A stretch of DNA of 64,000 nucleotides, from positions 4,216,001 through 4,280,000 of the forward strand of contig CAKKNE010000003.1 in assembly GCA_918797485.1 (NCBI GenBank). Direction: 5' to 3'. Within the stretch, counting starts at the first letter, position 1; each line of letters begins with the position of its first letter. The position numbers and the translations under genes are program-made. Positions 1,036 through 60,099 of the stretch are shown here, in pieces. The notes under the pieces are model-generated. The model did no database searches. It was not told where the DNA came from and saw nothing but the letters and a program-made list of their open reading frames with translations. The stretch comes from Pelagomonas calceolata (lineage: Eukaryota; Sar; Pelagophyceae; Pelagomonadales; Pelagomonadaceae).

Positions 1036-1381
1036 GCAAGATGACTGTGTAGCCCCGTGTTTATTGTTGCGGGGCTTGGACTCGTGGGCGGCCTCCGACG
1101 ATGAACGCAACCCACGTTCGCGCTAGCGCCTGTGAGACTCTAGCCCTGCCATGGCCCGCGGCCCACTCGCATTTTTTGCCGGGAGCCGCTGCGTACACAA
1201 GCTGGTTTGCACCAAGACTTGCCGGAAACCATCACTGCACAGCCCGGCGCTGCGCCGTACCTCAATCGCGCAGCGAGAGTAGCCACAGAGGCCAAACCCA
1301 GCAGGTGGCCTCCAGGAAAGAAACTGCAGCTAAGAGCAGTCACCGCACGCCGACGCAGCGGCAGAGGTGCACGAAAGAACC
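1036..1381. other. Intergenic, promoter region of the phosphofructokinase gene
   Basis: It holds one copy of the CTAG box (1123-1143), about 240 bp before the PFK start codon. Nothing else is evident. Confidence 0.5.
1123..1143 (-). promoter_or_regulatory. CTAG box 1 (upstream of PFK)
   Basis: Reads GCTAGCGCCTGTGAGACTCTAGC, split here as GCTAGCGCC and TGTGAGACTCTAGC. It has the same architecture as 14 other intergenic boxes in the window, with two changes in the GTAAGACACTAG half. It lies 239 bp upstream of the PFK ATG. Confidence 0.55.
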
Positions 1382-2900
1382 ATGCGCCGCGCCGCCCAAC
1401 TGCTACGGCGCACGGCGCCCTACGCTCTTACGGGCACGGCCGTCGCCGCCTGCGACGACGACAGATTCACAGTGGAGAAAGTGAATGTGATCAAAATTCC
1501 CCACCTGCGCGACCAGGGCTTTCCGGGAGCGAACAAGTCGAACGTGGCGGCCTTCGGGTACGCGAAATTTGTCTCCGATGAGGATTGCGTCCTCGGCGAC
1601 ATTGTGCTCAATGGACCCTCTCATACGACAAAGGCCTATACGAGAGCAGGACCGAGGGAGAAGCTCCACTTCGACCCGCAGGACACGAGGTGTGCTATCG
1701 TGACGTGCGGCGGGTTGTGTCCTGGGTTGAACACAGTAGTAAAAAATCTCGTGGAGATATTGGAGTCGAGATACGGCGTCGAGAAGATCTACGGCATCAA
1801 AGGTGGCTACCGCGGCTTCACGAGTGTCGGCTGGGACGCTCCCTTGGAACTCACGGCGGACTGCGTCAAGGATATACACAGGGAGGGCGGTACTCTGTTA
1901 GGTACTTCGAGGGGCGGCTTTGATGCGGAAAAAATTGTGGAGTGGCTGCGAGCGAAGCGCGTGAACCAGCTCTACGTCATCGGGGGCGACGGGACCCATA
2001 GAGGCGCCTACAAGCTCGCGGAGCTCTGCTGGGAGAAGGGCGTCGACGTCTCGGTGGCCGGTGTTCCAAAAACAATCGACAACGACATCGGTGCGTGACG
2101 CGGCGTCTGTCTTTCGCGTCGCGTCGACGGCGTCGCCGCGACCACGCGAACGCGCAGGCATCATCGACCGCTCCTTCGGCTTCATGACCGCGGTCTCCGA
2201 AGCTACAAGAGCGATCGAGGCCGCAAGGACCGAAGCCGAGAGCAACCGGCCGAACGGCATCGGAGTGGTCAAATTGATGGGGCGCAGTGCCGGCTTCCTG
2301 GCCGCCTTCGCGACGCTCGCGTCCCAAGACGTCGACCTATGCTTAGTTCCGGAAGTGCCTATAGTGTTGGAAGACGCCTTGCCTCACTTGGAGCGAGTGG
2401 TCGACAAGAAAGGTCACGCGGTTGTTGTGGTGGCGGAAGGGGCTGGGGAGGAACTACTGGGAGCGTCTGCGGAAGTCGACGCGGGCGGCAACAAAAAGTT
2501 ACCGCCCATCGGCGCCTGGCTCACGAAGCAGATCAAGAGCTACTTCAAAAGTACTAATAGGGAGGTTACGGTGAAGTACATCGATCCGAGCTACATGGTC
2601 CGGTCCGTTCCTGCCGATGCGGGTGATAGCTACTTATGCATGCTGCTGGCGCATGCCGCCGCCCACGGCGCGATGGCGGGCTACACGGGTTTTACGGTCG
2701 GGCTGGTCAAGAACAAGAGCGTGATGATCCCCATTCCCGAGCTGGCGCGGACGTCGCCGCGAAGCATGAACGCTAGAGGTAGGACCTGGGAAAGGGTGGT
2801 TGCGGTGACGAACCAGCCCTGTGCTGTTGCTCGCAAAGAGGTCTCTTGGGCTGAAAAACAGCACGCGCGCACGATGACGAACCAGGCGGCGGGGCCCTGA
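1382..2900 (+). CDS. PFK: 6-phosphofructokinase, plant-type
   Basis: Two exons (1382-2090, 2158-2900) give 483 residues. The enzyme phosphorylates fructose 6-phosphate, the committing step of glycolysis. Visible family motifs are TCGGLCPGLN (nucleotide-binding loop), GGYRGF, GTSRGG, IGGDGTHRGA, the catalytic PKTIDND, the post-intron IDRSFGFMTA, and MGRSAGFLA. The order and spacing match plant and stramenopile ATP-type PFKs. GGDGTH argues for ATP over PPi as donor, by family knowledge only. The first residues MRRAAQLLRRTAPYAL resemble a mitochondrial or plastid presequence. The start is the ATG at 1382; an in-frame GTG at 1367 is not needed. The intron splits the codon for Gly in DNDI-G-IID and restores the motif exactly. 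Confidence 0.93.
2091..2157 (+). other. PFK intron (67 bp)
   Basis: GTGCGTGACG to CGCGCAG, phase 1. Removing it joins DNDIG to IIDRSFGF. Its start and its GTCGACGGCGTC core resemble the family C introners described below, so it may be a shortened copy. Confidence 0.85.
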
Positions 2901-3005
2901 GCTCTCGCCTGCGTCGGAGGCGTCGGGCGGTCGCGGCGATGGCGTCTGGGGGGCTACGAGGCATGGGGCCCGGCTGCGGCCCCCCGTATACTAAGTATAT
3001 AACTG

Positions 3006-4273: not shown

Positions 4274-4346
4274 GAATCTCCATCGATCGTTCACTGGTCG
4301 ATTGCATTAATACAGGATGAAAAGCCACCGGCACCGGCACAGCCAG

Positions 4347-4367
4347 CTAGCGGTGGTAAGATACTAG
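4347..4367 (-). promoter_or_regulatory. CTAG box 2 (between the Obg-side ORF and ankyrin gene)
   Basis: GCTAGCGGTG then GTAAGATACTAGC. It lies 84 bp before the ankyrin ATG at 4451 and about 75 bp from the divergent small ORF start. Confidence 0.6.
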
Positions 4368-4450
4368 CATAGGCTTCGAGGCATGATACGGCGCCGGTAA
4401 TAGACGTAGGCGTCGGCGACTGGACGTATGAGATTCCGCATCAACAAAAA

Positions 4451-5388: not shown

Positions 5389-8300
5389 CTAGGAGTACTT
5401 GTCGACCATCTGCTGCAATTCATCTTTCGACTCCCCGGATTCTATGGTAATGTCGTCGCGCGCGTCGAGGATCTCTCTCAGTTTATTCCGTTGGGATGAC
5501 GGTAGCACGCCGTCGTCTAGGAGATGCGACGGGTCGTCGCGAGGGGTTCTACGTAGTGCTGTCTCGTAGTCTGGCAGGATAGCTTCCGCTCTTTCCAGCA
5601 TGCGATGCGCGAAGTTTCTACGTTCTTCGACTTTGGATCTAGCATATCTTCGGTGTAGATCACCGTATAGAGCAGCAGCCATCGCGTCCGAACCTAACAA
5701 TTGCAATAGCTCCGCCGTAGCAGCGAGTTGTTTATCCAAGTCTCGAGAGCGTTTTCCCTTGACTAAAGGTGGACCCAATACTCGCAGATGCGTCGCCAGC
5801 GACCTCTTGCGAAGGTACAGCGCGACGTGGGGCCTGCCCCTTTCGACCTCGACGTCCGCGAGAGCAACTAACGTTCTCGACACTTGGACTTCGAGGGCAT
5901 CTCGGGACCGTTTATGCCTAGGCTTGAAGAACTTTGCTCGCTGCTCCTCCGTCATGCGCAACTCCCTTTCGGACGGGCCCTCCAGGGCTCTTCTATTCTC
6001 CCTCCTGAAAACGCGTTTTTGTTTGGCCAGTAGTCGTCTTAACGTAACAGCCGCCTCGCCAAACTCCTTCCGTCGGCATTTATACTTCGCAAATTCCAGT
6101 TCCGGCGGGTCCGGCGGCAGGGCCTCGTCGCCCGCGAACTCGTTGTCGTCGTCCACAATACGACGTAATCGCTCCAAGTTCTCGCGCCACGCCTCCACAT
6201 CGATCCCGAAGTGCTCGTGGCCCCGCGCGTCCTCCCAGGGGTCGGCCAGGCCGTCCGGTGCTCTATACTTTGATTGATAGCCTCGCCTCCGTTGCTGTTG
6301 CATTTGTCTGCGAAACGCGTCGCGGTGGCGCCGCTCGCCCCGCCGTAACTCGACCTCCGTGTCTTCGCCGTACACGTCGTCCTCGTCGTCCGACGATAAG
6401 TCGTCGCGCGCGTCCCTCGCATCTCGGGCGTCGTCATCGCCGTCGAGGAAGCGCTGCAGGACGTCGTCCTCGAGCCGCGCCGCGTCGAACCACCGCTCCT
6501 TCGGTGTGGCTGGACTCGGACCCTCCGGCGTCTCCGGGCGTCGACGTCTGACAGGTGAGGGCAGGCGCGCGGGCGCCGGGGCTGCCGCAGGTGCCGGCGC
6601 GGGCGCGGGCGCCGGCGCTGGTGCGCACGCGGTGTCCTCATCACTCGACGAGTAGTCAGAAGACGAGGACTCCCTGATGACCAGGGACATGCCCTTGTAG
6701 CGCTGGGTGGAGTGCTCCCTGGCCTCCTTTAACTCGCCGCGGACCATGAAGCGCGTCGACGCGTCGCCGTACTTCGCGCGATAAGAGCCTTTGAGGTCGC
6801 CGAGCGGGTCGCGTAGCGACTGCAGGTACGCCATGGCCGCGTCGGCGGCGTCGCGCGCGTCGTCGCGGTCCTTCTGGCGCCGTTGCGCGGCCAGCTCCTG
6901 CTTCTCCACGAAATTGCTGCCCCGCCTCCGTCGCGACCGCGACACCGACCGTCGCGGTATCGTCTGCACCGGCTCCAATGATTCAAGAGACTGTCTTGTA
7001 GACTCAGAAACGTCGTCCATTTTATATACTCCTCTGTCAGGTAGATCCCCAGACCCAAGAAACGCTACTGGTATCTCTCTTGGTTTAAGCCTCCATCGCC
7101 AAGTAGTGTCGCCGTCGGCCCGCTCCGGGCTGTTCAACACATCATTGAGACTCATCTGACGGGGGTCCTTCGTATCAACGTCGACCTCGAGCAGGGCCTT
7201 CGTCACTTTTAGTGACTGTAGGTACTTCTTCGTGCGTCGGTAGGCGTCGAGGGCCTCGTAGGCGTCGATGGCGTTCGCCGGGCCCCGGTCGCGCGCCGCG
7301 AGCAATACGACGCCGATGTCGGTCGTAGGTCCACTGCCCCTTTTGAGGGCGAACCCTCCAGCGTTCGAACAGGCCACATCCCTTAAAGACGCGTCGGCGC
7401 CATGTCGTAACAACGCGAGGACGCAGTCGAGGTCCGTGACATCTGCCGCGGCCATCAGCGCCGTCCGCATGTTTTTATTTTGATAGTTCGGGTCGCAGCC
7501 GGCTAGGCATAGATTGTGGACCTGTGTGGAAATCAAAATTTTACGGCGCGTTCGTGCTGGATCGCCGCGTCGCCCTCCACGCCATCGACGCGACGCCTGC
7601 TCGATGGCGTGGCGATGCCGGTTCCTCGCCGCTCGACCGAGCCAGGACGGCCGCGTCATCGCCGAGAAATGACTTAGTGAAGAATCGTCGAGCACCCGAC
7701 GCACCGGTTGATTTCCACACAGTTGTGCACGAGCTTCGCGTCGCCCGCGTGGCAGGCCACAAATAAAGCTGTGGTCCCTGTTCGGGTTTCTTGGTCTGGC
7801 GCGCAATCTCCTCCTCGGATGACACTGAGAGATGTGTTTTTGTCCTCGATGACGCCCTGGCCCGTTTCTATGGCTCGCTCCAGTCGAGCGTACTGTAGTA
7901 GTGCTGCTCGTTCGAGGTCTTGGTCCTTTCTCGTCGAGACGACCTCGCGGCCCACTCGTCGCACTCGCCGCAGATAGTCTCCTAGTCTAGGCTGCTGCAT
8001 GTGGATCGCGAGTTCCGAAGGGGACACACCTCGCGCGTCGCCGACTTCGGTCCTTGCGCCTTTCTTCACGAGATGAACACAGGTCCGCAGGTCTCGCCGC
8101 GTCACCGCGAGATGAAGTGCCGTATAATTGTCCGGGCCGTAAGGTTGGTCGAGCAGTCGTTGCACCGTCTCGGGGCCGTGCTCCCGCTCCGTTTCTTCCA
8201 CCATTACATCTATACAGTGTAATTGTGCAGCAGAGGCAGCAGCCACCAGTGGTGGCAACACGACTCGTCGCGCCTCGTACTCCTCCTGCGTCTCGCGCTC

Positions 8301-10392: not shown

Positions 10393-10750
10393 GGTGCGTG
10401 CGTCGCGGCGGCGGCGTTAGCGGATCGCGTCGGCGCTAGGCCATGATGTCTGATATATGGGGTGGCTGGTGGCGCGGGCGGCGCGGGGCAGCGCTGCGCC
10501 GCGGCGCACGACGAGTGGGCAGCGACCACAGCAGCTTCGCCGGGTGGCCAGCGGAGGGCTGGAGGCTGCCTCAAATCAGCTTGGCCGCTGCGCTTGCTAG
10601 TGTCTTACCCTCGCTAGGTATGAACTCTTCACGGTCTCTTTTTTTGTCGGGTGAATAGGTCTCGCCGCGCCGACGGCGTTCTGTTATTAACAACTTATTT
10701 CCAGCGACGTGACCAATACTTTTTTTCGGCGCTCAGGACCGATTTGCTGC
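10393..10750. other. Divergent intergenic region
   Basis: Upstream of the large ankyrin gene (minus) and of a small plus ORF. It contains one CTAG box (10597-10617) and no other recognisable signal. Confidence 0.5.
10597..10617 (+). promoter_or_regulatory. CTAG box 3
   Basis: Reads GCTAGTGTCTTAC then CCTCGCTAGG, the reverse orientation of boxes 1 and 2. It is 205 bp from the minus-strand ankyrin ATG and 134 bp from the ATG at 10751. Confidence 0.65.
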
Positions 10751-18075: not shown

Positions 18076-21000
18076 ATGGGAACGAAAATCGCTGCCTCGC
18101 CCGCGCTCCCACGCATAAGAACGAAAATCGCTGCCTCGCCCGCGCTCCCACGCTGGCGGTGCTCCCGAGTAATCTGTTTGCTGCTGGCCGTGGACCCTAC
18201 GGCGGCGGCGTCGGCGCGCGGACTGGTGGCGCCTCCTTTGAACGGGACGGATGTTGTGGTCTCGCTCATGCCGCCCGGCACGACGAGAGCGACGCCGCGC
18301 GCGCCGGCGGTCGCCCGGGACCGGCGGCTGACAGACTACGCGGAGACGGACAAGATGCTGGCGAGCGACGGCGCCGCGAGCGACTGGTTCGGCGTCTCCG
18401 CGGCCGCCGCCGGCGACCTCGTCGCGCTCGGAGCGCCGAGGCACAAGACCGACGCCGGCGCGGTCTACGTCTTCCGGACGAGCGACGGCGGCGCCACCTA
18501 CGGCCAGGTGGCCAAGGTGGCGCACCCCGCGATCGCCGACGGGGCCTGCGCGGCGTCCTGTTTCGAAAAATCGTGCGACACCTGGTTCAACGACGGCTAC
18601 GCCTGCGCGACGCTCGAGGGCACCTACGGCTGCGACTGCTCGGGCTGCTCATGCGGCGCCGGGTACCTCTTCGGCTGGTCCGTGGCGCTGGCCGGCGACC
18701 GCCTCGTCGTCGGCGCCGGGTGCCCGGCCTGGTGGACCCTGGGCTTGTGCGACTACGCCAACGCCGCGATCGTCTTCCGCACGGCGGACAACGGCGCGTC
18801 GTGGACGCACCTCGCGACGCTGACGGCGGCCGACGCGGGGCCGGACACGCGCTTCGGCTCCGCCGTGGCCGCCGCCGGCACCGTCGTCGCCGTCGGCGCG
18901 CCCCACGACGACGGCGGCGGCGGCCTCCAGTCCGGGGCCGTCTACCTCTTCGCGACGAGCGACAATGGCGCGACGTGGGCCCAGACCGCGAAGCTCAAGG
19001 CCGCCGACGCCGCCGCCTACGACATGTTCGGCATCTCCGTGGCGACGGACGGCGCCACCGTCGTGGCCGGGGCCTTCGGCGACGGAAACGCCGGGTCGGA
19101 CGGGCAAAACAATCCGGTCGGCGCCGTGGGTGCGGTCTACGTCTACCGCGCGAGCGACGGCGCCCAGCTGGCCAAGCTCACGGCCGCCGACGCCGCGGCG
19201 GAGGACTTGTTCGGCTTCTCCGTGGCCATCGACGGAAACACCGTCGTGGTCGGGGCCCGCGGCGACGGCAGCAACGCGGGCGCCGTCTACCTGTACGACA
19301 CGGCGACGTGGGCCGAAACAGCGAAGCTCGCGGCGGCCGACGCGGCCGCGGGCGACCTGTTCGGCTACTCTCTTTCCCTGTCCGGCGACGGCCTCGCCGT
19401 CGGGGCCATGGGCGACGACGGGTCCGCGGGCTCGGTCTACCTCTTCCGCACGGACGGCACGACGTGGACGCAGTACGACGAGGTCACCTCCGGCGACGCC
19501 GCGGCCGGGAACGTCCTCGGCTACTCGGTGGCGCTGTCCGGCGACCGCATTGTCGCCGGAGCACCCAACGATGACGAGCTCGCCGAGAACGCGGGCGCGG
19601 CCTACGCCTTCGTCCCGGCGCCTACGGCTATACCCCTGGTAGCGGACGACACCACGATTAGAACGGCAGTCGCGGCATGGACCTCGGACGCGGCGACCGC
19701 CGAGGCGATGTACGGCCACATCTCGACTTGGGAGACTTCCGGGGTGACGGACATGTCGTTTTTGTTTTGCGTGCGGCAGGATTGGATGGATCATAATTGG
19801 ATGGACGATGCGGAATATTATGATCCCTGCGTGCTTCCGGCATCTGCGGCGTCCTTCAACGAGGGCATCGGCGCGTGGGACACCTCCGGCGTAACGAGGA
19901 TGTACGGGATGTTCTACTATGCCTCGTCCTTTAACCGAGACATCGGTAATTGGGCGGTCGACAGCGTCACGAGCTTGAGCGGGATGTTCGAACACGCCTC
20001 GTCGTTTAACCAGGACATCGGTGGTTGGGCGGTCCAAAGCGTCACGGAGATGGGCTACATGTTCGAAAGCGCCTCGGCCTTCGACCAGGACCTCGGCTGG
20101 TGCGTGGATGACGACGTCTACATGGTCGACGCGTTCTCCGGCACCCCGTGCGAATCGACGTCGTGCGGCGTCGTGCAAATGGACAACTGCCCGATCACGG
20201 GCTACGTCATGGACGACACCACGATTAGAACCGCCGTTACCGCGTGGTTTGCCGACCAGTCCGCCGCCGAGGCGACGTACGGCCACATTTCGACTTGGGA
20301 GACTTCCGGGGTGACGGACATGTCGTTTTTGTTTTGCGTGCGGCGGGATTGGATGGACGATCCTGATGAGGCGGAATATTATGATCCCTGCGTGCTTCCG
20401 GCATCTGCGGCGTCCTTCAACGAGGGCATCGGCGCGTGGGACACCTCCGGCGTCACGACGATGCACCAGATGTTCAGCTTCGCCTCGGCCTTTAACCAGG
20501 ACATCGGCGCGTGGGACACCTCTGGCGTCACGACGATGCAAAGTATGTTCCGCAGTGCCTCGGCCTTTAACCAGGACATCGGCGCGTGGGACACGTCTGG
20601 TGTAACGGACATGATCGGGATGTTCGGAGGCACTTCGGCCTTTAACCAGGACATCAGTGATTGGGCGGTTCACAGCGTCACGATTATGAGCGACATGTTC
20701 CAAGGCGCCTCGGCCTTTAACCAGGACATCGGCGCGTGGGACCTATCTGGCGTAACGATGATGGAGGAGATGTTCGACGGCGCCACGTCCTTCGACCAGG
20801 ACCTCGGCTGGTGCTTTGACGACGGTGTGAGCCTGGAAGGCCCGGGCTCCAATGGCCTATTCTCCGGCACCCTGTGCGAGTCGACGTATTGCGGCGTCGT
20901 GCAAATGGACAACTGCCCTACGCCTCGTCCGTCCTCCACGCCGACGACCGGCGCACCGACGTACTGGACGCCGGCGCCGACAGGTGCGCCGACTGCGCCA

Positions 21001-22530
21001 ACACATGCACCGACGCATGCACCGACAGGTGCGCCGACGCTTGCGCCGACGTTGCAGCCGACGGGCATCCCGACGCCGGACCCGACCGCGTCGCCGACGC
21101 CCGAGCCGACCCCGGCACCCACCGCGACGCCGACAAAAAAGCCGACTCGCGAGCCGACCTCGATCCCGACGGCGCAGCCGCAAGCCTCGTTCAAACCGAC
21201 TCGCGTGCCCACCTCGATCCCGATCGGTGCGTGCGCCGCCGGTTACTACACCTGCGCCAGCTGCTGCGACCAGGACGCGGACTGCTCGTGCGACGGGCAC
21301 GGCGGCGACGCCTACGACCACGACTGGCGCACGCCCAAGTGCCCCGAAGGATATTACGAGTGCGGCGACTGCTGCGACCGCGACGCGGACTGCGGCTGCG
21401 ACGACCATTGCGACTGGGGCTCGAACGCGGACTGCTCCCTCGCGTACGACGGCGACGCCAAGCCCGCGGGATGGTGCCCCGTGGGCTACCACGACTGCGG
21501 CCATCACGACTGTTGCGATTGGAACAGCGACTGTGCGTGCGACGGCGCGTGGCGGACGGGCAACGACGACGAGCACTGCGGCGTCGGGCCGACGGGCCAC
21601 GACGGCGCGCTGCCGGACTTCGAGTGCAGCGTGCGCAAAGGCTCGACGTCTGCTGGCAGCGTGTCCCTCTACGAGGACAAGAGCCGCGGCTCGGAATGCG
21701 ACGCGCTCGACTCTAGCGGAAATGTCGTGGACGCGGACTCCGCGGACCACTGCTGCCAGGGTGAGGCTTATTGTTGCGATTACGGGTCATGTAGCTCGGA
21801 TTCGGACTATTGTGGCCACCGATTCCGCTGTGGCGGCTCTCTCGAACCCGGGGACGGCGCGTGCGCCAGCATTCACGTGCATTACGGCGAGGCCTGCAGC
21901 TCGGCGCACGGAGAGGCGCACGGCTGCCCGATCGTGAACGTCCCGCGAGAGACGTGGGATTACGATCTTTGGAGCTGCGACGACTTGTGCGGGCGAGTCG
22001 GCGGGTGGTGCGAGCGCGCGGCGTACATGAGCAACGATCACTGCGGGTCCGACGTGCACGAGGAGTACGAGCTCTCGTGCGATCAGGGCATTCGTGATTC
22101 GGGTTTGACGTATCCGTCCCACACTCTGTGCTGGTGCCGGGTCGACGACACGGACCACTGGTGGGACTATTACCACGAAGAAGACGACGACGACGACGAC
22201 GACGACGGCGGCTCGGAGCTCGTCATGTCCGGCGGCCTCGTCGCGATCGGCCTCACGTTTACCGGCATCAGCATCGCGGCGATCGCGAATGCGGTCCAGG
22301 AACAATGCGCCTTGGGACCGACGATCGTCTACGAAGCTGGCACGACTCACCCCTACTACATCTCACCAAATCTATGCTCCATCGGGACCAAGACCTACGC
22401 TTCGAAGACGACCGTGCGCGACGCCTCGCCGCGCAAGGTCTGCCGCAAGTTCTGCGAGGCCGCGTCCGCCGCCGGGAAGCTGGCGCTCAAGCACGTGCAG
22501 GGCCTGACGTGCTACTGCAAACGGAGGTAG
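18076..22530 (+). CDS. Mosaic surface protein: FG-GAP propeller, DUF285 repeats, Cys-rich region, TM
   Basis: 1,484 residues in one exon. After a hydrophobic leader ([16 protein letters not shown]) come FG-GAP-type repeats at ~95-500, each like FGxSVAxxGDxVVVGAxxDD-x-AGAVYLF. Then two DUF285/BspA-like blocks (~505-960) with units such as [14 protein letters not shown] and a closing DQDLGWC. A Pro-Thr linker (~970-1080, APTGAPT) leads to a Cys-rich block with repeats of GYYxCxxCCDxDxDCxCD. An Asp-run (22183-22206) precedes a membrane segment near residue 1385 ([19 protein letters not shown]) and a short Cys-rich tail. Probably an adhesion or cell-covering protein. Long frames on other strands here are GC shadows. 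Confidence 0.85.
18081..18153 (+). repeat. Tandem 39-bp duplication at the FG-GAP protein N-terminus
   Basis: A 34-bp segment starting AACGAAAATCGCTGCC at 18081 recurs at 18120, period 39 bp, giving the doubled peptide [11 protein letters not shown]. The reading frame is kept. It lies before the hydrophobic leader, so translation may begin later in vivo. Confidence 0.85.
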
Positions 22531-22978
22531 AGCCCTTCTGCCGCCGGCCCATCGCCGCCCCTCCCTCCCCAATAGACTCCATAGAATCCCGGCGCCTGGG
22601 AGAAGTAAGGCATGGTGTAGTTATGCTGCGTGGTTGTAATTTTCGTCGGCGTGGAATTGTTCCGAGGTCACGGCGGACGAGTCCGGCTCGGCGCGGCTCT
22701 CGAAGAACTTCCGCGACGAATGGGTCGCAGGCAAGTAAGCGGTCATCTGCGCTTCAGACGGAGTAACAGTAGCTCGGGGCGCGTACATGCTAAAAATGAG
22801 CTAGCGGCCTGTAAGACACTAGGCATCCCTAGGATGCCCAAAGCCTCTCGACGCGCGCGCCAGGAGACGCCGTACCGTTGCGAAGCGCTCGCCTGCGACG
22901 CGCACGCGTGCAGCGCGCCGTCGCCGCGACGCTCTCGACGCACCAGCAGAGTCACAGCGTGTCGTCGCCGCGCCAGCC
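22531..22978. other. Intergenic, upstream of NAA50
   Basis: 448 bp with one CTAG box (22801-22822), immediately followed by CATCCCTAGGATG. No ORF of note. Confidence 0.5.
22801..22822 (-). promoter_or_regulatory. CTAG box 4 (upstream of NAA50)
   Basis: GCTAGCGGCCT then GTAAGACACTAGG, a consensus copy 157 bp before the NAA50 ATG. Confidence 0.7.
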
Positions 22979-24414: not shown

Positions 24415-24835
24415 CTGGTTGTTCGTCGGTGGTGTCAGTGGCGTCAGCGAAGTGGTCCAGACGCGTCCGTCAGTGGTGTGTGTCAGCGAGGGGGGTAGGG
24501 GGGTTTGCTGCAAAAGCTGGCACGACAGGAACCGATGTCTTTTCTCAGCGCAGCGCGGTAGCACGGCAGGCCTATGACTGCTGGCTGCTACTTGGGCGCG
24601 CTGACGGCTTAGTTTGACGGCTTTTGGCGGCGGTGGCAACGCTGCTAGCGCCCTGTAAGGCACTAGCAATCACGCCGCCGCGCGGCAACAAAAGACGCGT
24701 TACGCAAGCGATTAACATCTCTTAACGCGCGGCGCGCTTGCTTTTTGCCAGCACGCAGCGCGCAGCCGTGCAGTGCGCACGAGTTTGCTCCGCCAAGCCG
24801 TAGGACACCCGCGCCGCCGCGGCGCGCAACAACCG
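24415..24835. other. Divergent intergenic region
   Basis: 421 bp upstream of the NDUFAF8-like and SAP30BP-like genes. It contains one CTAG box (24645-24666). Confidence 0.5.
24645..24666 (-). promoter_or_regulatory. CTAG box 5
   Basis: GCTAGCGCCCT then GTAAGGCACTAGC. It is 170 bp before the SAP30BP-like ATG and 231 bp from the divergent NDUFAF8-like ATG. Confidence 0.65.
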
Positions 24836-25378: not shown

Positions 25379-25575
25379 GTCGATGTTACGGTGCTAGGAC
25401 TAGTGGGCGGAGCCCCTGGGGGGGAGACACCGCGCGTCGCCGATTCATCGGCGGCGGGCGCGGGCCGCTTCTTTCATAACAGCGTACCTCCTTCTAAGCA
25501 GAACCGCCTCGGCAAACCCCCCCGAACAATGTGCAACGTTCGCCCGTTCAATCAACTTGTCCCGCGACTTCCCGC
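25379..25575 (+). repeat. 197-bp dispersed repeat, copy 1
   Basis: Identical by eye over all 197 bp to 47724-47920, including two 7-base homopolymers, and flanked by different sequence. It starts GTCGATGTTACGGTGCTAGG and ends CGCGACTTCCCGC. The minus strand has a short open frame (KLIERANVAHCSGGFAEAVL ... ARARRR stop) in both copies, so it may be a duplicated gene 3' end or a non-coding RNA gene. A shorter relative lies at 55771-55813. Confidence 0.9.
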
Positions 25576-25590
25576 TCCCCCCGGGCCGGG

Positions 25591-25612
25591 CTAGTGTCTC
25601 ACAGGACGCTAG
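25591..25612 (+). promoter_or_regulatory. CTAG box 6
   Basis: GCTAGTGTCTCAC then AGGACGCTAGC, 16 bp after the 197-bp repeat and 158 bp before the ATG at 25770. Confidence 0.6.
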
Positions 25613-25769
25613 CTAATTATTGGCAAGCACGTGTGCGAGAGCATCCGGCGCGGTGCAAAATCGCTATTGCAACGGGCCCAAAAATTCCCGCTCAGGAACA
25701 CCATCGGCCGGCGTGCAAGCGGGCGCCGCAGCACTCGCAGTCCTTATTCGCCTCAACTGCACCAGCACC

Positions 25770-31777: not shown

Positions 31778-31960
31778 GTCCTCCGCGCGCGCGCGCGCTT
31801 TATCTATCCCTCCCCATCCCTCTCCCTCTCCCCGTCCCCGTCCCGCCCGCCCTTCCCTCCTTCCCTTAGATAAACCTCGTCGGGTATCGAAAGCGTCTTG
31901 GTTGGTCCCGTGAATACTTTGCGGCAAAGCCAAGGCTCTGTTCTCACATCCCTCCCGTTT

Positions 31961-32100
31961 GCTAGTGTCTTATTACAGGCCGCTAGCCCACGCGGGATTA
32001 AAAGCCGACGTTTCATCGTCGACGCGGCGCTCGCGGCCAGACGTGTCTGCGCGTGGCGTAATATAGGCCGAGTTGTTCGCCGCGCACCGCCGCGCGCGCG
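31961..32100 (+). repeat. ~140-bp repeat, copy 1 (includes CTAG box)
   Basis: Aligns with 36393-36530: both have the box, then CCCACGC, a GCCGACG and TTTCATCGTC segment, GGCGCTCGCGGCCAGACGTG and GGCCGAGTTGTTCGCCG. Differences are scattered substitutions and small gaps. Confidence 0.85.
31962..31986 (+). promoter_or_regulatory. CTAG box 7
   Basis: GCTAGTGTCTTATTAC then AGGCCGCTAGC; a 3-bp longer variant (TTA duplicated). Not near an annotated start: 185 bp after one stop and ~200 bp from another. Confidence 0.55.
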
Positions 32101-33957: not shown

Positions 33958-34042
33958 CGCTATCTGTCAGGCGTCGCCAAGTCCTTCTTCCAGCGTACGT
34001 GCCCTAGCGGGGGCGTTTTTGCGAGAGAGCAGCTCTCTGGAG

Positions 34043-34064
34043 CTAGCGCCCTGTAAGACACTAG
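34043..34064 (-). promoter_or_regulatory. CTAG box 8
   Basis: GCTAGCGCCCT then GTAAGACACTAGC, a consensus copy. It is 86 bp from the minus-strand ATG at 33957 and 158 bp before the ATG at 34222. Confidence 0.7.
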
Positions 34065-34221
34065 CAATCTGCCGCGCTGCCCCGCCGGACGCAGCAATAC
34101 CAGCCCTGAAAGCGTAGCAGAGGCCAGAGAACTCCTCATCTATCAGAAATAAATCACTCGAGACGACAGCGGTGCAAGTTTCGCGCGCCGCACCCTCTAC
34201 GGCCTAGGCATCCGGTGCACC

Positions 34222-36283: not shown

Positions 36284-36392
36284 ACGGGCTCCTCGTCTCT
36301 ATCTAGCAAGTAACTACGTGATACTGTGCAAACTTACCTGCCCATAGCCACCGCGTCGGCCATAGTAATAGTAGGTTGGCCTGCGGGCTTGT

Positions 36393-36530
36393 GCTAGTGT
36401 CTTACAGGCCGCTAGCCCACGCTGGATCGATTAAGCCGACGGTTTTCATCGTCCTCCGTGGCGCTCGCGGCCAGACGTGTCTGCGCGCGGCGTAATAGAG
36501 GCCGAGTTGTTCGCCGGACCGCCGCGCTCC
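36393..36530 (+). repeat. ~140-bp repeat, copy 2 (includes CTAG box)
   Basis: Partner of 31961-32100. It lies just upstream of the UIM-protein start, so it may be the functional promoter copy. Confidence 0.85.
36394..36415 (+). promoter_or_regulatory. CTAG box 9
   Basis: GCTAGTGTCTTAC then AGGCCGCTAGC, perfect consensus. 229 bp before the ATG at 36644. Confidence 0.7.
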
Positions 36531-47723: not shown

Positions 47724-47920
47724 GTCGATGTTACGGTGCTAGGACTAGTGGGCGGAGCCCCTGGGGGGGAGACACCGCGCGTCGCCGATTCATCGGCGGC
47801 GGGCGCGGGCCGCTTCTTTCATAACAGCGTACCTCCTTCTAAGCAGAACCGCCTCGGCAAACCCCCCCGAACAATGTGCAACGTTCGCCCGTTCAATCAA
47901 CTTGTCCCGCGACTTCCCGC
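47724..47920 (+). repeat. 197-bp dispersed repeat, copy 2
   Basis: Identical by eye to 25379-25575 over the full length, in the same orientation. It begins 64 bp after the RING-Tubby stop. Confidence 0.9.
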
Positions 47921-48047
47921 AGGCGACCTTGGACCGCGGCGACGCGTTCGGCACCGTACACTCCAACAAAGCCAGTAGACACTCGGCCCGACCCTTGACA
48001 ATCGCCACGCTTCACTCCCGGTAGATCCGTGCTGGTGGAGTACATCC

Positions 48048-48069
48048 CTAGCGGCCGGTAAGACACTAG
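48048..48069 (-). promoter_or_regulatory. CTAG box 10
   Basis: CCTAGCGGCCG then GTAAGACACTAGG. The nearest annotated start is far (49484), so it may serve an unseen transcript in this stretch, such as the hairpin RNA starting ~25 bp later. Confidence 0.6.
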
Positions 48070-48091
48070 GGATGCTGCAAGCAAGCGGGCT

Positions 48092-48210
48092 GCACATGAG
48101 GCCATGTGCTGCACACGCAAAAACACGGTTGGCGAGCGAAGCGGAGCAGCGAAGCTGCGCAGCGGAGCCGCCAGCCGTGTTTTTGCGTGTGCAGCACAGG
48201 CCTCATGTGC
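48092..48210. repeat. Long inverted repeat (hairpin), 36-bp arms
   Basis: Arms 48092-48128 and 48175-48210 are complementary except for one bulged A. The arm starts GCACATGAGGCC and continues TGTGCTGCACACGCAAAAAC. The 46-nt loop (GCGAAGC/GCGGAGC-like repeats) can pair partly as well, beginning TGGCG/CGCCA. Transcribed, it would form a stable ~119-nt hairpin. Confidence 0.9.
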
Positions 48211-48214
48211 AGCC

Positions 48215-48240: not shown

Positions 48241-49340
48241 GACGGATTTTGGAACGACTGCCTTCGAGGCCTTTCGACGGCCGCGAACTCTACGTTCGCG
48301 CGCCGCAACCGCGCGCAGCAGCTGCCAGACATCCGAGGGCACCGCGACGCCAAAAATTCTAGCTCTAAATGGCTTTAGACGCGCGCGGCGCGCGAAAGAC
48401 GCGTTCGCCGAGAATCGCCGAGATGCAATTTTTCACGCCCTTCCGTTTTTGCGAACTTTGAGGCCCACGGCATCGTTTCGCGTGAGTTCTGGGACGCAGC
48501 GAAACCTCTGACGCGACTTCAAAGGATTTTGTGAGCCGTGCCGGCCCGGCGCATCGAGTCGAGAACGAACGCGCGCAATCGCAAAAGTGCCGAACAGATG
48601 GATGCGCGCTACGCGCGCGGTCGCACAGCACTCGTGGAGCGTCGCGAGCGCTTCTATCGGCTCGGAAACCGCCTGTCGGGGCATTTAGCGCCTTTGTTTC
48701 CTAAAATTCAATTTCTTAAATATACTAAACGGGTTTCTCAGGGACTCTTTCTATGGGACCTACTGGCCACTCCCGGCCCCAGAAAGGAACAAACGCCGCC
48801 CTACAGCCCAACCCGACGCGCCCATAGGGGCCTCCCTAGCGGCCTAGAGCGGACGGGAGCCGGGTCGCGCATTCGCGGACGGCCACCCGACGACCGCACG
48901 AGCCGCGACGATCGATTCCGCCAGTTTGGCGGAGCACCACAGTTGCCATGATCACGTATAGCGAGCGATGCGACTCCATAGCGCGTCATAGCGATCAGTG
49001 GCTGGTTTTCATCCGCGCACTGCACTTGTGCGAAAACGCGTCTCGGCGCATGGGTGTGTGCGAGTCCTAAAGAGTGTTATAAGTCATGCTGGCGCAACGG
49101 ACGTGTTGTATGTATGGTCGGCAACTGTCCCGTGGCGCGAAATGAGTCCGCGCGGCGTTTACGGGCGGCCGTGACCGATCGTAGGCATCGCAGCGCTTTT
49201 GGCTAAAATCATGCGCGCGCGCGTTTTTTTCCGTGTGTGAAGCCTGCGCGCAGTCGTTCGAGGTCCAAGGACACCCCTCGTAGCCCCACGTGTGAAACGG
49301 AGCGATTTTTATTTCGCGCGCACACGGCGCACACGGAGGG

Positions 49341-49363
49341 CTAGTGTGTGCACAAATCGCTAG
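49341..49363 (+). promoter_or_regulatory. CTAG box 11 (divergent copy)
   Basis: GCTAGTGTGTGC then ACAAATCGCTAGC: ends and GTGT are kept, the middle is replaced. It overlaps the right 26-bp inverted repeat and lies 121 bp before the ABC transporter ATG. Confidence 0.4.
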
Positions 49364-49378
49364 CGCCGTGGCCTGTGC
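49353..49378 (-). repeat. 26-bp inverted repeat, right copy
   Basis: Reverse complement of 48215-48240. Together they bracket ~1.16 kb, which could be a non-autonomous DNA element, though no target duplication is evident. Confidence 0.8.
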
Positions 49379-53191: not shown

Positions 53192-53535
53192 GTTTTGGCT
53201 CTTTGAATGTGCAGGCTGCGCGCCGCGCGCGGCGCGCAGGCGTCGAGAGCGGTTCGGGCAGGCGTCGAAACGAGCGCTGGCAAATTGCCAGGCGTGTTCC
53301 AAAGCGTCCACAAAAGCTAAAAAGCCAAAGGGTGCCGTGCTTTCTAGTGTCTTACTCGCCGCTAGCGACGCCGCGCTCGAGCGCTCTGGGAATCAAAGCT
53401 CTCGCATCCTGCCGCAGTTCTCGAGATAGAGAGGGCGCTGCAGCACAGGAGATTCCTTGGCACGTTTCTGCAGCCCCTGGAAGTGGTCGGTGCAGCGCTG
53501 ATTACGGACAAGGCGAGGCAGAGATCGGCTCACCT
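53192..53535. other. Divergent intergenic region
   Basis: Upstream of the PHD and FN3 genes; contains CTAG box 12 about midway. Nothing else noted. Confidence 0.5.
53344..53365 (+). promoter_or_regulatory. CTAG box 12
   Basis: TCTAGTGTCTTAC then TCGCCGCTAGC, 153 bp from the PHD ATG and 171 bp from the FN3 ATG, i.e. central in a divergent promoter. Confidence 0.65.
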
Positions 53536-54687: not shown

Positions 54688-54719
54688 ATGTGTATAAGTG
54701 AACTACAAGTAAAAAGTTG

Positions 54720-54741
54720 CTAGCGGCATGTAACACACTAG
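54720..54741 (-). promoter_or_regulatory. CTAG box 13
   Basis: GCTAGCGGCAT then GTAACACACTAGC, one change (G to C) in the conserved half. 200 bp before the ATG at 54941 and 33 bp after the FN3 gene stop. Confidence 0.65.
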
Positions 54742-54940
54742 CAAGCTTGGCAAACCCGGCGGGCAGCGCTGTGCCAGCGCCCGACCTCTTCGGGCCCGCC
54801 ACGCGACGAAGCGACGCCTGCGACCGCCGACCGCCTCGCGACGCGCGGGCTGCCCGCCCCACAAACTGCCCACCTTGTGAATTGTGAAGGGCTGCCGGCC
54901 CGCGAACCCACGGCCCGCGGACAACGGAGCGCACGCGACC

Positions 54941-55726: not shown

Positions 55727-55770
55727 GCGGTTGTGTTGGTTTCGTCGCGGTGATCGCGGTGCGGTAGCGT

Positions 55771-55813
55771 CGATATGATTGTCACGGTGCTAGGATAGGA
55801 CTAGTGGGCGGAG
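55771..55813 (+). repeat. Fragment related to the 197-bp repeat
   Basis: CACGGTGCTAGGATAGG then ACTAGTGGGCGGAG matches the first ~35 bp of the 197-bp repeat with a 5-bp insertion (TAGGA). It lies 20 bp before CTAG box 14. Confidence 0.65.
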
Positions 55814-55832
55814 TTTGCGCTGCCATAAAACG

Positions 55833-55979: not shown

Positions 55980-57653
55980 ATGGCGCGCTCTGCCACCCGG
56001 TGCTTGGCCCGGCGCGCGCGCGTCGTCGGCGCGCTGCTGGCCTCCACGGCGAGCCTCGCCGCGGCCGGGCCGGCCAAGGCCTCTCGGCGCAAGCTCACGC
56101 GCTACGTCATGGACGACAGCACCATCAGAACGGCCGTCGCGGCTTGGTTTGCCGACCGCAGCGGCGCCGAGACGACATACGGCCACATTTCTACCTGGGC
56201 GACGGGCGGGGTGACGGACATGTCGTGGTTGTTTTGCGGGCGGCAGGATTGGATGGAAGGCGATTCGTGGTGGGACGACTGCGTCTCGGCGGCGTCCTTC
56301 AACGAGGACATCGGCGCGTGGGACACCTCTGGCGTCACGACGATGGAGTACATGTTCTACTACGCCTCGGCCTTTAACCAGGACATCGGTGGTTGGGCGG
56401 TCCACAGCGTCGAGAGCATGACCTTCATGTTCCTCTACGCCACGGCCTTCGACCAGGACCTCGGTGGTTGGGCGGTCGACAGCGTCACGGATATGAGCTC
56501 GATGTTCTATGGCGCTTCGTCCTTCGATCAGGACCTCGGCTGGTGCGTGAACGACGGCGTGGACCTGAACTGGGCGTTCTCCGAGACCCAGTGCGAGTCG
56601 ACGTCGTGCGGTGTCCTTCACACTGCTGCTCTAAGCTGTGGCGGCAAACCGATGGGCGACGCCACCATCCGGACGGCCGTCGACCTCTGGCTCTCGGACA
56701 GCGCCGCTGCCGAGGCGACGTACGGCCACATCTCGACGTGGGAGACATCGGGGGTGACGGACATGTCGTATTTGTTTTGCGGGGTGTCACCTGGTCTTGG
56801 ATGGAGTAATTGCAACACGGCCGCTGAGTCCTTCAACGAGGACATCGGCGCGTGGGACATCTCTGGCGTCACAACGATGGTCGCGATGTTCGGACACGCC
56901 TCGGCCTTCAACCAGGACATCAGTGGTTGGGCAGTCGACAGCGTCACGGATGTGAGCTCGATGTTCTTTAGCGCCCATGCCTTCGACCAGGACCTCGGCT
57001 GGTGCGTGGACGACGACGTGAGCCTGGGACTCCCAGGCGCGTTCTTCGAGACCCAGTGCGAGTCGACGTATTGTGGCGTGAAGTGGGAGACCAATACTGG
57101 CGACTGCGACGTCTCGCGCACGGGCAACGTCATGGTCAACTGGAAAATCAGATGGGCAGTCTCTGCGTGGCTTGCGGACGCGACGGCCGCCGAGGCGACG
57201 TACGGCCACATCTCGACGTGGGAGACATCAGGGGTGACGGACATGTCGTATTTGTTCGATGTTTATTACAACTCGGGCGCGGCGTCCTTTAATGAGGACA
57301 TCGGCGCGTGGGGCACCTCTAGCGTCACGACGATGCAGTACACGTTCTACGGCGCCGAAACCTTCAACCAGGACCTCGGTGGTTGGGCGGTCGACAGCGT
57401 CACGGATATGAGCGGGATGTTCTACGGCGCCTCGTCATTTAATCAGGACCTCGGCTGGTGCGTGGACGACGACGTCTACATCAACTTATTCACAACGTTC
57501 TCTGGCACCCAGTGCGAGTCGACGTCGTGCGGCGTCAAGCAAGTAGCCGGTGGCTGCGCGCCCTCGCCAGCGCCGACGAGCCCCGACCCCGTCGTCGACG
57601 CCGCCCGCCTCGCCGGCGCCAGCGCCGCGCTCCTCGCCCTCGCCCTAATATAA
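55980..57653 (+). CDS. Secreted DUF285 (BspA-like) repeat protein, possible GPI anchor
   Basis: 557 residues, intronless. Leader with RRARVVGALLASTASLAAAG. Three modules, each starting [15 protein letters not shown]-like, then [20 protein letters not shown], several [14 protein letters not shown]-type units, and closing FDQDLGWCV ... QCESTSCGV. It ends with SPAPTSPDP and a terminal hydrophobic tail (ARLAGASAALLALALI), the layout of a GPI signal. Closely related to blocks in 18076-22530 and 31160-31777. Role: cell surface, otherwise unknown. Confidence 0.85.
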   Translation: MARSATRCLARRARVVGALLASTASLAAAGPAKASRRKLTRYVMDDSTIRTAVAAWFADRSGAETTYGHISTWATGGVTDMSWLFCGRQDWMEGDSWWDDCVSAASFNEDIGAWDTSGVTTMEYMFYYASAFNQDIGGWAVHSVESMTFMFLYATAFDQDLGGWAVDSVTDMSSMFYGASSFDQDLGWCVNDGVDLNWAFSETQCESTSCGVLHTAALSCGGKPMGDATIRTAVDLWLSDSAAAEATYGHISTWETSGVTDMSYLFCGVSPGLGWSNCNTAAESFNEDIGAWDISGVTTMVAMFGHASAFNQDISGWAVDSVTDVSSMFFSAHAFDQDLGWCVDDDVSLGLPGAFFETQCESTYCGVKWETNTGDCDVSRTGNVMVNWKIRWAVSAWLADATAAEATYGHISTWETSGVTDMSYLFDVYYNSGAASFNEDIGAWGTSSVTTMQYTFYGAETFNQDLGGWAVDSVTDMSGMFYGASSFNQDLGWCVDDDVYINLFTTFSGTQCESTSCGVKQVAGGCAPSPAPTSPDPVVDAARLAGASAALLALALI

Positions 57654-57659
57654 CAAACA

Positions 57660-59581
57660 TCAGCTTACGCCCTCCCGCTCGTTCTCGGCCCAGTCGATCA
57701 CGAGGTGCCGCCCGTACAGGTGCGCCGCGCCCAAAGCGCGCCTAGCACTCGCCGCGTCTTGAGGCCTCTCAAACTCCACAAAGGCAAACCCGCGCGCCCG
57801 CCCGTCGTAGCGCTTCGGGACCCGCACGTTCTTGAGGGACCCGAAGGTGCCGAAGAGGTCGCGCACGTCGCCGGCCGACGCCGCAAAGGCGAGGTTGCGA
57901 ATAACGAGCTTCGACTGTTTCTTGGAAGACGAAGCCGCCTTCTTGGACACGCGGCTCGCCTCGATGACCAGCGTGCGGCCATTCAGATCCGTGAGACTCA
58001 GGGCCTTGGCCGCGTCCGTCGCACTACTAAATTCGACGAATCCAAACCCGCGGTTCGCGAAGCCCTCGTCCGCGGACCCGGGGAAGACCACCGATCTCAC
58101 CTTGCCTGCTGACGCAAAGTGCCGCTCCAGGTCCTGCGTGGACGTGGCGAACGACAAGCTTTTGACGAAAATAGTTCCCGTTTGCACTTCGTCGTCCGAA
58201 TCCTCATTCCGCGCAGGGGCCCAGCCCACGTAGAGCGGCGTGCCGTCGAAGGCCCTGTAGGCGAGCTTCTTGAGGGCCGTTCGCGCTTCGGTCGGCTGCT
58301 CGAACTCGACAATAGCACTGGTATGAGACGGCGCCAGCAACACATCTGTCACGACGCCAGACTGCGCGAATAGAGTACGGACATCCTGTACGGACGTCGA
58401 CGCGGGCAGGTTCTTCACCAATAAAGCGGTCCTTGATCGTGTGGCCGCGTCGAGGGCGTAGCCTTTTTGTGCGAAGTAGGTTCGGGCTTCGTTCTGCGCC
58501 GCGCTCTCGGCCAGCGTCGACGCGACGGCCGCATCACTACGAGTAGGGTCGAACAGTTGAGCCTTCGACGCGCCGGCGCGCTCTGCGGCCGCGTCCTTTG
58601 CCGATGAAGCTGATATAAATTCGCGCGATTGATCTTCGGTCGACGCTTTTTGCTTCCGCTCCTCAGCCCGCTTGTCGGCGAAGGTCCGTCTGATGGGCGC
58701 GTGGTCCGCCGGCCTCGCCTCCGCTCTCTGAGCCGTCAGAACCCGTCCCTCGAAGGCCGAACCGTGCAGACCCTCTACACATCTATCGGCATCAGACGGG
58801 AGGACGTAGGTCACGAACCCGAAGCCCTTCCGCTTTCTCGACTTCGCATCGATGGGCAGGTGGACTTCACTGACGGCGCCGTACCTCTCGCAGAGACTCT
58901 CGACGTTTTCTTCCGACGCGCCGTACGGGATGTTCGACAGGAAGACGCGCGCGTTGCCGTCGTCGTCGCCGTCCGACGCCTCTTCGGCCGGTGCCTCGTC
59001 GGCCTGCGTGGTGATAGCGTGAGCCGTTGACTCGCGGTCGTCGGGGCGCTCTCGGCCGAGCCACCGACACGACGCGGCGCGCGTACGAGGACACCGCCGC
59101 GTACCCCGTCCCGCTTCGACCGCAGGTACGCGAGGTCGTCCAAACCAGCATCAAAGGCCTCCTCGGACCGCTCTACCGGCTCGGGCTCCGCGGGCGCCTC
59201 TTGCTTGACCCCGGCCAGCTCGAGGAAGCGCTCGCGCTTCGTGGGGGCGAGGCGCTCCTTTGGAGGCGGAACTACTTTTTTGGCCTTTTTCTTTTTCGGC
59301 GGCTCGGTCGGTACGGGCGCCTTGCGCTTCGCCGCCGGCGCCACTCGCAATTTCGACGTCCGCCAGTAGGCGCCGTTCAGGGCCTTGGCCGCGCGCTGGG
59401 CGCTGTCCGCGTCCTTCAATCCCACGAACGCGAAGCCTCGCGACTTCTTTTTATCGGTCTTGCGCCGCGGGATCTGGACGTCCGTGACGCCGTATTCAGC
59501 AAAGTGCTTCCGCAGCGCCTGCTCGTCGCAGTGCGGCGGCAGGTCCTGGACGAAGAGGCGCGACGTGCCTTCAGTGGCCAT
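57660..59581 (-). CDS. MRD1: Five-RRM RNA-binding protein, RBM19/Mrd1-like
   Basis: Exons 59581-59105 and 59003-57660, 606 residues. RRM1 ~8-78 (RLFVQDLPPHC ... SRGFAFVGL). A Lys-rich linker follows (PPKKKKAKKV). RRM2 ~176-250 (ARVFLSNIPYGAS ... KGFGFVTYV). RRM3 ~325-395 (ALLVKNLPASTS, atypical RNP1). RRM4 ~405-480 (GTIFVKSLSFATS ... RGFGFVEFS). RRM5 ~500-580 (KLVIRNLAFAASAGDVRDLF ... ARGFAFVEFERPQDA). Order and the strong last RRM match Mrd1/RBM19, which organises the early pre-rRNA complex for 18S processing in the nucleolus. The intron joins RSKRDG to ADEAPAEEASDGDDDG. Confidence 0.87.
59004..59104 (-). other. Intron of the RBM19-like gene (101 bp)
   Basis: On the minus strand GTACGCGGCGG to CACCACGCAG, phase 0. 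It contains GCGAGTCAACGGCTCACGC, distantly like family C, but donor (GT) and exon start (GC) differ. Confidence 0.75.
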
Positions 59582-60099
59582 TTTGTCGATAGTCGAGTGC
59601 AGCGCCTTGGGGCGGACAGCGGTGGCCGCGCTTGGTCGGGAGCGCTGTGAAGTCGCCGGGAGCGCTGTGCTACGGGTCTCAGTGTTCTAAGCGAGCGTGG
59701 GCGGCACTGCGGAGGCTGCTGCGGATTGACGTTGCTAGCGTGCAGTAAGACACTAGTCGGGTATTTCAGACACGGACCGCGATTCGTCCGTGCACGCTCG
59801 CTGCGGGCCGTTCACACCTGTAAAGCACAGCGAAGACTGCCCACGGCACCTCCGAAGAGCGTGAGCACCGCGCGGCGAGGCTAGCGCAGCTCCCGCGGGG
59901 CCAGCGAAGTCAAAGGCCGTCAGGCGACGCCGTGCGCCGCGCGCCGCGCAAGCAGCCGGCAGCGCAGCGCTCTAGCCGCCGCGGCGTCCGCGCGCAGCCG
60001 CCGACGCAGCGAAGGGCCGCCGCGCCCGCGAAGGAACCAGCCGCGCGCGAGACGCGCCGGGCATAAGCGAAGGAGCCCGGCCGCACACGAAACGTAACG
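59582..60099. other. Divergent intergenic region, RBM19-like / PRP8
   Basis: 518 bp between two RNA-processing genes. Contains CTAG box 15. The 200 bp before PRP8 is very GC-rich with GCCGCGCGC runs. Confidence 0.5.
59736..59757 (-). promoter_or_regulatory. CTAG box 15
   Basis: GCTAGCGTGCA then GTAAGACACTAGT. 155 bp from the RBM19-like ATG and 343 bp from the PRP8 ATG. Confidence 0.65.

What the first reader, a model, noticed from the sequence alone, without database searches (positions are those of the whole stretch)
1123..59757. A near-palindromic CTAG box recurs 15 times between genes
Seen: GCTAGCG, a 4-6 bp spacer (one longer), then GTAAGACACTAGC, 21-25 bp in all, at 1123, 4347, 10597, 22801, 24645, 25591, 31962, 34043, 36394, 48048, 49341 (divergent), 53344, 54720, 55833 and 59736. 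All are intergenic; 13 lie about 80-260 bp upstream of a start codon, several midway in divergent promoters, in both orientations. The GTAAGACACTAG half is the most conserved. None lies in a coding region. Inference: a lineage-specific core promoter or architectural protein site, used by perhaps a third of genes here. I know of no described motif like it.
Basis: partly seen in the sequence, partly recalled or inferred. Interest (0 to 1): 0.86.

Follow-up and report, generated by a model that had tools for sequence, protein, structure and literature searches.

The report
Directional CTAG promoter box in alga
In a compact algal genome, a 24-letter DNA signal sits about 150 letters in front of many genes, usually pointing at the gene, and appears to mark where the gene's RNA copy begins; no described promoter signal that we found looks like it.

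Summary
In detail: all 15 sites exist, far above chance. Consensus: GCTAGCG-NNN-TGTAAGACACTAGC-AANC.

Bacterial MAGs with mis-binned, apparently algal contigs gave 15 more boxes as a second test set; five of these were not what brought the contigs in.

Three features suggest a directional promoter element at the 5' end of transcription units:
- It points at its gene in 17 of 19 one-sided cases (window 7 of 9, contigs 10 of 10).
- Median distance to the first ATG is 156.5 bp; 18 of 26 boxes lie 120-210 bp away, 5.9 expected.
- Strand asymmetry starts near it: downstream 7 ATG to 37 CAT, upstream 37 to 27; change point -46, range -70 to +34.

Best reading: a start-site-associated core or proximal promoter element bound by an unidentified factor. 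Some bidirectional use is possible: the side facing away also shows uATG depletion (8 boxes, p 0.03). No box holds an oomycete INR, FPR or DPEP motif. There is no transcript or protein evidence, and the species (probably Pelagomonas) is inferred.

The parts
1122..1144 (+). CTAG box; 238 bp before the first ATG of the phosphofructokinase gene (ATG 1382)
4346..4368 (+). CTAG box in a divergent promoter; 83 bp to an ankyrin gene (+, 4451), 276 bp to an Obg-type GTPase gene (-, 4070)
10596..10618 (-). CTAG box; 204 bp before a gene (-, 10392) with a sub-cutoff ACBP match
22800..22823 (+). CTAG box; 156 bp before a GNAT acetyltransferase gene (22979)
24644..24667 (+). CTAG box; 169 bp before an HCNGP-like gene (24836)
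25590..25613 (-). CTAG box pointing away from its only neighbouring gene start (+, 25770, 157 bp; an ORF without Pfam support): one of two orientation exceptions
31961..31987 (-). 27-bp box with a 3-bp insertion, between convergent genes; part of a 136-bp duplicate of the 36393 segment; probably a non-functional copy (inference)
34042..34065 (+). Full-consensus CTAG box in a divergent promoter; 157 bp to a + ORF (34222), 85 bp to a - ORF (33957), neither with a Pfam match
36393..36416 (-). Full-consensus CTAG box; 30 bp before an ATG (36363) followed by a GTAAGT donor-like site; weakly supported gene
48047..48070 (+). CTAG box with no assigned gene downstream within 1.4 kb
49340..49364 (-). 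Degenerate-centre box (arms kept, centre TGTGCAC); 120 bp before an ABC transporter gene (+, 49484), pointing away: second orientation exception
53343..53366 (-). CTAG box in a divergent promoter; 152 bp to a PHD-finger gene (-, 53191), 170 bp to a + ORF (53536, sub-cutoff fn3 match)
54719..54742 (+). CTAG box; 199 bp before an ORF at 54941 (no Pfam match); identical 24-mer in contig G002:C182:585-608
55832..55854 (+). CTAG box; 126 bp before a DUF285 repeat gene (55980)
59734..59757 (+). CTAG box in a divergent promoter; 343 bp to PRP8 (+, 60100), 153 bp to an RRM gene (-, 59581)

Best explanation
The box is a directional promoter element of a compact, GC-rich algal nuclear genome, most likely a pelagophyte such as Pelagomonas. 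It lies at or within a few tens of bases of the transcription start of roughly a third of genes. A sequence-specific factor, probably binding the two inverted GCTAGYG arms as a dimer with the asymmetric TGTAAGA centre giving direction, would fix the start site or open chromatin there and recruit the initiation machinery. Shown: sequence, recurrence, position, orientation bias, and the composition and uATG boundary. Inferred: that this boundary is the start site, that a dimeric factor binds, and that the element drives transcription.
For: 1. 15 window sites far above chance. 2. Nine contigs from other assemblies hold 15 more boxes; ten brought the contigs in and five were found inside them afterwards. 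3. Orientation matches the gene in 17 of 19 one-sided cases; contigs alone 10 of 10, p 0.001. 4. Median distance to the ATG in its own direction 156.5 bp (24 boxes); 18 of 26 boxes lie 120-210 bp from their gene against 5.9 by random intergenic placement (p 5e-5); holds in window alone (9 of 13, p 4e-4) and contigs alone (9 of 13, p 3e-4). 5. Out-of-frame ATG against CAT: downstream 7 to 37, upstream 37 to 27, Fisher p 1e-5 (24 boxes); 17 non-divergent boxes only: 5 to 25 and 25 to 20, p 8e-4. GC and AT skew -0.13 and +0.17 downstream, 0.04 and -0.01 upstream; change point -46, bootstrap -70 to +34. 6. Not in coding-scored segments; 4 window boxes lie in divergent promoters, so it is not simply a 3'-end signal.
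Against: Two of 19 boxes point away, and the window alone gives 7 of 9 (p 0.09). Nine opposite-facing gene starts lie 85-347 bp away, seven of them in divergent pairs, and on that side uATGs are also depleted (8 boxes: 3 ATG to 7 CAT towards the gene, 17 to 6 beyond the box, p 0.03), so bidirectional use is possible. The window-only uATG test is marginal (4 to 11 and 16 to 10, p 0.05). The change point is broad and AT asymmetry begins before the box. Arm spacing varies by several bases. Boxes 31961 and 48047 have no gene; 15 of 32 listed gene starts lack a box. Gene starts were chosen by hand as first ATGs, several without Pfam support, and the 120-210 bp interval was chosen after seeing the distances (the SD test was not). 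No RNA 5' ends, no binding data.
Confidence: 0.72

Rival explanations
1. An orientation-indifferent general regulatory or insulator/architectural factor site (as Reb1, Abf1 or CTCF are used; recalled) that clears nucleosomes in intergenic regions and only lies near genes because the genome is compact.
For: Long high-information motif; 6 of 15 window boxes have a gene start on the side they point away from; 25590 and 49340 have only that one; uATG depletion also on that side; broad change point partly upstream of the box.
Against: 17 of 19 orientation bias and a tight distance to the ATG after allowing for intergenic length; transcript-like skew is clear on the side the box points to and weak on the other (GC skew -0.13 against -0.03).
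Confidence: 0.18
2. A 5' UTR RNA element (hairpin, spliced-leader-like or 5' splice site, since GTAAGA resembles a donor).
For: GTAAG/GTGAG/GCAAG variants look like splice donors; the arms could form a short stem.
Against: Upstream of the box ATGs are not depleted, so an upstream exon is unlikely, while downstream they are, so it is not intron. The C-A mismatch next to the five-base stem recurs in nearly all sites and the outermost pair is not kept in several. Two boxes are inverted relative to their gene.
Confidence: 0.05
3. Terminal repeat or footprint of a transposable element that prefers promoters.
For: Inverted arms; the 31961 and 36393 boxes share 136 bp of homology that stops at the box edge; a dispersed repeat lies beside several boxes.
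Against: No conserved flank beyond AANC over the boxes as a set and no other pair of window boxes with shared flanks in the self-comparison; consistent orientation and distance to genes.
Confidence: 0.05

Closest known systems
Oomycete INR+FPR and DPEP core promoter elements (Phytophthora; PMC3599244)
   Same: Long stramenopile start-site elements in a minority of promoters (INR+FPR about 13%), with forward orientation bias (ratio 5.9) near the start codon, judged by similar criteria (abstract and passages read).
   Different: None of INR (YCAYTYY), FPR (MWTTTNC) or DPEP (SAASMMS) lies in any of 30 boxes, and none is clearly enriched within 60 bp. The CTAG box is longer, GC-rich, bipartite and further from the ATG.
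Long single-factor promoter motifs such as THAP11/ZNF143 (SBS) in mammals or M1BP Motif 1 in flies (recalled, no call)
   Same: High-information element of about 20 bp, at many housekeeping promoters, near the start, often directional.
   Different: Sequence unrelated by recall; factor unknown here.
Yeast general regulatory factor sites (Reb1, Abf1, Rap1) (recalled, no call)
   Same: Common promoter-proximal sites that keep promoters open.
   Different: Shorter, mostly without the orientation bias seen here.

Membership tests
Oomycete INR/FPR/DPEP core promoter | Contains YCAYTYY, MWTTTNC or SAASMMS at the start site | tested here: not met
   0 of 30 boxes contain any of the three; within 60 bp sense counts 3, 2, 9 against 2.1, 2.3, 11.7 expected. 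The start site itself is not known.
TATA-box promoter | TATAWA near the start | tested here: not met
   One sense hit over 30 boxes with 60-bp flanks, 0.5 expected; 1 of 30 boxes contains one
Core promoter element (general class) | Preferred orientation relative to the gene | tested here: met
   17 of 19 one-sided boxes; contigs 10 of 10, window 7 of 9 (p 0.09 alone)
Core promoter element (general class) | Preferred distance to the gene start | tested here: met
   18 of 26 within 120-210 bp of the ATG against 5.9 expected; distance to RNA 5' ends not testable
Core promoter element (general class) | Lies at the mapped transcription start | tested here: inconclusive
   Only a proxy: uATG and skew boundary near the box, change point -46 (bootstrap -70 to +34)
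Core promoter element (general class) | Mutation alters transcription | not testable with these tools
   Needs a reporter assay
MITE / transposon terminal repeat | Shared interior sequence between copies, bounded by paired ends | tested here: not met
   Only one pair of window boxes shares flanks (31961/36393), with no second box at the far end; no conserved flank beyond AANC overall
MITE / transposon terminal repeat | Target-site duplications | not tested
   No element boundaries to test

The most novel reading that the evidence does not exclude
A pelagophyte lineage starts transcription of a third to a half of its genes at one directional, bipartite element of over 30 bits (GCTAGCG-NNN-TGTAAGACACTAGC-AANC). 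An unknown lineage-specific initiation factor would read it in place of TATA or INR, so core promoter recognition was rebuilt in this group of ocean algae.
Probability: 0.35. Interest if true: 0.75.

Novelty: new variant of a known kind. Interest (0 to 1): 0.62.

Why it matters
Core promoters outside animals, fungi and plants are poorly mapped. A single strong directional element near gene starts in an ocean alga would let start sites be predicted from sequence, help annotate and engineer pelagophytes, and give a defined bait for finding a new transcription-initiation factor.

Tried and rejected
No whole genome is held for the window, so a genome-wide count was impossible. Two viral-contig scans found no box. 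Scanning 97 relatives of the MAG G002 found the pattern only in G002. By my own rough estimate (no call) the pattern would turn up a handful of times by chance in 257 billion bases, so its six hits alone prove little; what counts is several boxes per contig, gene context and shared repeats. The loose pattern CTAGCG-N(8-13)-CACTAG is not above its reversed control: G001 1 against 42, G002 9 against 8, G003 2 against 7, G004 1 against 10. That control contains GATC, which may be common in bacteria, but one search is no evidence by itself. The stricter patterns had controls of 0 in all five genomes, and 0 except one hit in G003. Left out of all counts: the hit in the insect symbiont (G005, 43% GC; 32.9 bits; genes around it not examined) and G003:C39:22502, in bacterial-looking sequence at a contig end. 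Rfam found nothing at its gathering scores. Splice-donor, RNA-hairpin, 3'-end-signal and transposon readings were considered and set aside (see rivals). A search for the box's letters found two papers, unrelated by title and abstract (listing only); Pelagophyceae plus core promoter found one unrelated paper (listing only). A giant virus of a pelagophyte is said to carry a conserved motif upstream of its DUF285 genes (passage of PMC5917014, citing a 2014 paper I did not see); I could not compare it with the box.
Full report
Check of the observation. All 15 sites are in the window. They read GCTAGCG, 2-4 free bases, then TGTAAGACACTAGC; lengths are 23-25 bp, with one of 27 bp at 31961. 14 of 15 have 2 mismatches or fewer and 49340 has 4; ten simulations gave nothing at 3 or fewer. 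A matrix from the same 15 (so partly circular) finds only these at 12 bits or more: fourteen at 29.5-37.2, and 49340 at 20.1, whose arms are kept and centre changed. Fifty simulations averaged 0.68 hits at 12 bits or more, with a maximum of 21.0, so 49340 is not significant alone. The arms CTAGCG and CACTAG lie within 60 bp of each other 15 times against 0.13 in simulations; 13 of these are boxes, nine with a gap of exactly 10, while boxes 1122 and 4346 have changed right arms. No box position lies in a coding-scored ORF segment.

Whose DNA. Pfam hits include PRP8, HDAC, HECT, PHD, HCNGP and RRM proteins, so the window is eukaryotic. GC content is 64%. Pelagomonas calceolata has 63% GC and 0.45 introns per gene (passages of PMC9481584; motif and promoter do not occur in its main text). 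The identification as Pelagomonas or a close relative is inference.

A second set of sites. A scan of the species genome collection for GCTAGCG-N(2-5)-GTAAGACACTAG found 6 stretches: five in four MAGs (whose run names I recall as ocean samples) and one in an insect symbiont, left out. By a rough estimate of my own a handful is expected by chance, so the gene context matters. Reading the contigs and searching with mismatches gave more. Nine contigs hold 15 boxes: ten brought the contigs in, and five (C141:461, C141:4290, C182:2685, C146:5363, C146:8486) were found inside them afterwards. Signs of algal origin: C146 encodes a PTPA protein, C182 a PAP-fibrillin (plastid) protein, C536 a sirtuin, and the end of G004:C32 a HAD-ankyrin protein; C141, C146 and C18 share dispersed repeats with the window. 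For C169, C634 and G001:C13 the evidence is only the box, composition and reading of ORFs. G001:C13 and G004:C32 look like chimeras in which only the stretch by the box is algal (inference). The loose-pattern scan is not above its reversed control and is not used as evidence. Whether the contigs belong to the same species as the window is unknown.

Position and direction. I assigned gene starts by hand, as the first ATG of a coding-scored or Pfam-supported ORF or one read by eye. Of 30 boxes, 24 have a gene start in the direction they point, 9 in the other direction (7 have both), and 4 have none: window 31961 and 48047, C169 and C634. Of 19 with a gene on one side only, 17 point at it (window 7 of 9, one-sided p 0.09; contigs 10 of 10, p 0.001; all p 0.0004). 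The median distance to the ATG in the box's direction is 156.5 bp. Of 26 boxes with a gene, 18 lie 120-210 bp from it (the other-side gene used where it is the only one), against 5.9 at random in the same intergenic spaces (p 5e-5); window and contigs each pass alone (9 of 13 each, p 4e-4 and 3e-4). The interval was chosen after seeing the data, but the standard deviation is also smaller than in permutations (p 5e-5). In contig C141 four consecutive genes each have a box 133-222 bp ahead.

The box marks a boundary. A 5' UTR should lack upstream ATGs on the sense strand. Counting only out-of-frame triplets between box and start codon, there are 7 ATG against 37 of the reverse complement CAT; in up to 200 bp of intergenic DNA upstream there are 37 ATG and 27 CAT (24 boxes, Fisher p 1e-5). 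Divergent promoters could inflate the upstream count; with the 17 non-divergent boxes it is 5 to 25 and 25 to 20 (p 8e-4). Contigs alone give p 0.002, the window alone p 0.05. On the side facing away, for 8 boxes, depletion is also seen (3 to 7 and 17 to 6, p 0.03). Downstream, C exceeds G and A exceeds T (GC skew -0.13, AT skew +0.17); upstream both are near zero. A step model puts the change at -46 relative to the box, bootstrap -70 to +34, above all 200 shifted controls. So transcription probably starts within some tens of bases of the box. It cannot be said on which side.

Mechanism. The arms GCTAGCG and CACTAGC form an imperfect inverted repeat, while the centre TGTAAGA is asymmetric. The arms are the most constant part; weak sites keep the arms and vary in the centre. 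I infer a dimeric or multi-finger factor that binds the arms, with the centre giving direction, and that helps place the initiation complex. 11 of 32 listed gene starts in the window have a box pointing at them within 400 bp, 6 more have one pointing away, and 15 have none (some listed starts are GTG or TTG starts from the mechanical ORF list).

Comparison. The nearest described elements in the same supergroup are the oomycete INR+FPR and DPEP elements (PMC3599244, abstract and passages). None occurs in any box, and none, nor TATA or CCAAT, is clearly enriched within 60 bp. The box works like a core or proximal promoter element but is not a member of those families. A search for its letters in the held papers gave two papers, unrelated by title and abstract.

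Weak points. There are no transcript ends, no binding data, hand-chosen start codons, two inverted boxes, two orphan boxes in the window, signs of bidirectional use, and no second species with certainty.

Noticed in passing
window 25379-25575 and 47724-47920; partial relatives at 55780 and 1065, L022:299 and 2050, L035:5285: A dispersed element of up to about 200 bp (start TGTTACGGTGCTAGGACTAGTGGGCGGAG), two copies 100% identical over 197 bp; most copies lie shortly after the stop of an upstream gene and before a CTAG box. Possible mobile element or 3'-end signal.
   Followed up: partly
window 31960-32095 and 36392-36527: A 136-bp segment duplicated at 87% identity whose homology ends at the edge of the CTAG box; the 31961 copy has a 3-bp insertion in the box.
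   Followed up: partly
window 7521-7666, 30985-31131, 23880-23963; L035 about 6250-6890: Another short dispersed repeat family, shared with contig G002:C146; perhaps introner elements.
   Followed up: no
window 18076-22530 and 55980-57653: Two DUF285 repeat genes (the first also with FG-GAP repeats) with extensive internal and mutual repeats; only the second has a CTAG box.
   Followed up: no
window 48088-48214: A near-palindromic segment of about 127 bp (85% identical to its own reverse complement) just after the orphan box at 48047.
   Followed up: no
L022 (G002:C141) 7635, - strand: A right-half-only match (12.3 bits, left arm missing) 239 bp upstream of the minus-strand gene starting at 7396 and pointing at it; not counted as a box.
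   Followed up: no
L001-L005 (MAGs behind G001-G004): Bacterial MAGs in the species genome collection appear to hold mis-binned or chimeric algal DNA; the CTAG box may be a marker for such contamination.
   Followed up: partly
window 25814-25908: ARAGORN reports a tRNA-Val here on the - strand; it overlaps an ORF that I read as the start of a + strand gene, so it is probably false.
   Followed up: partly
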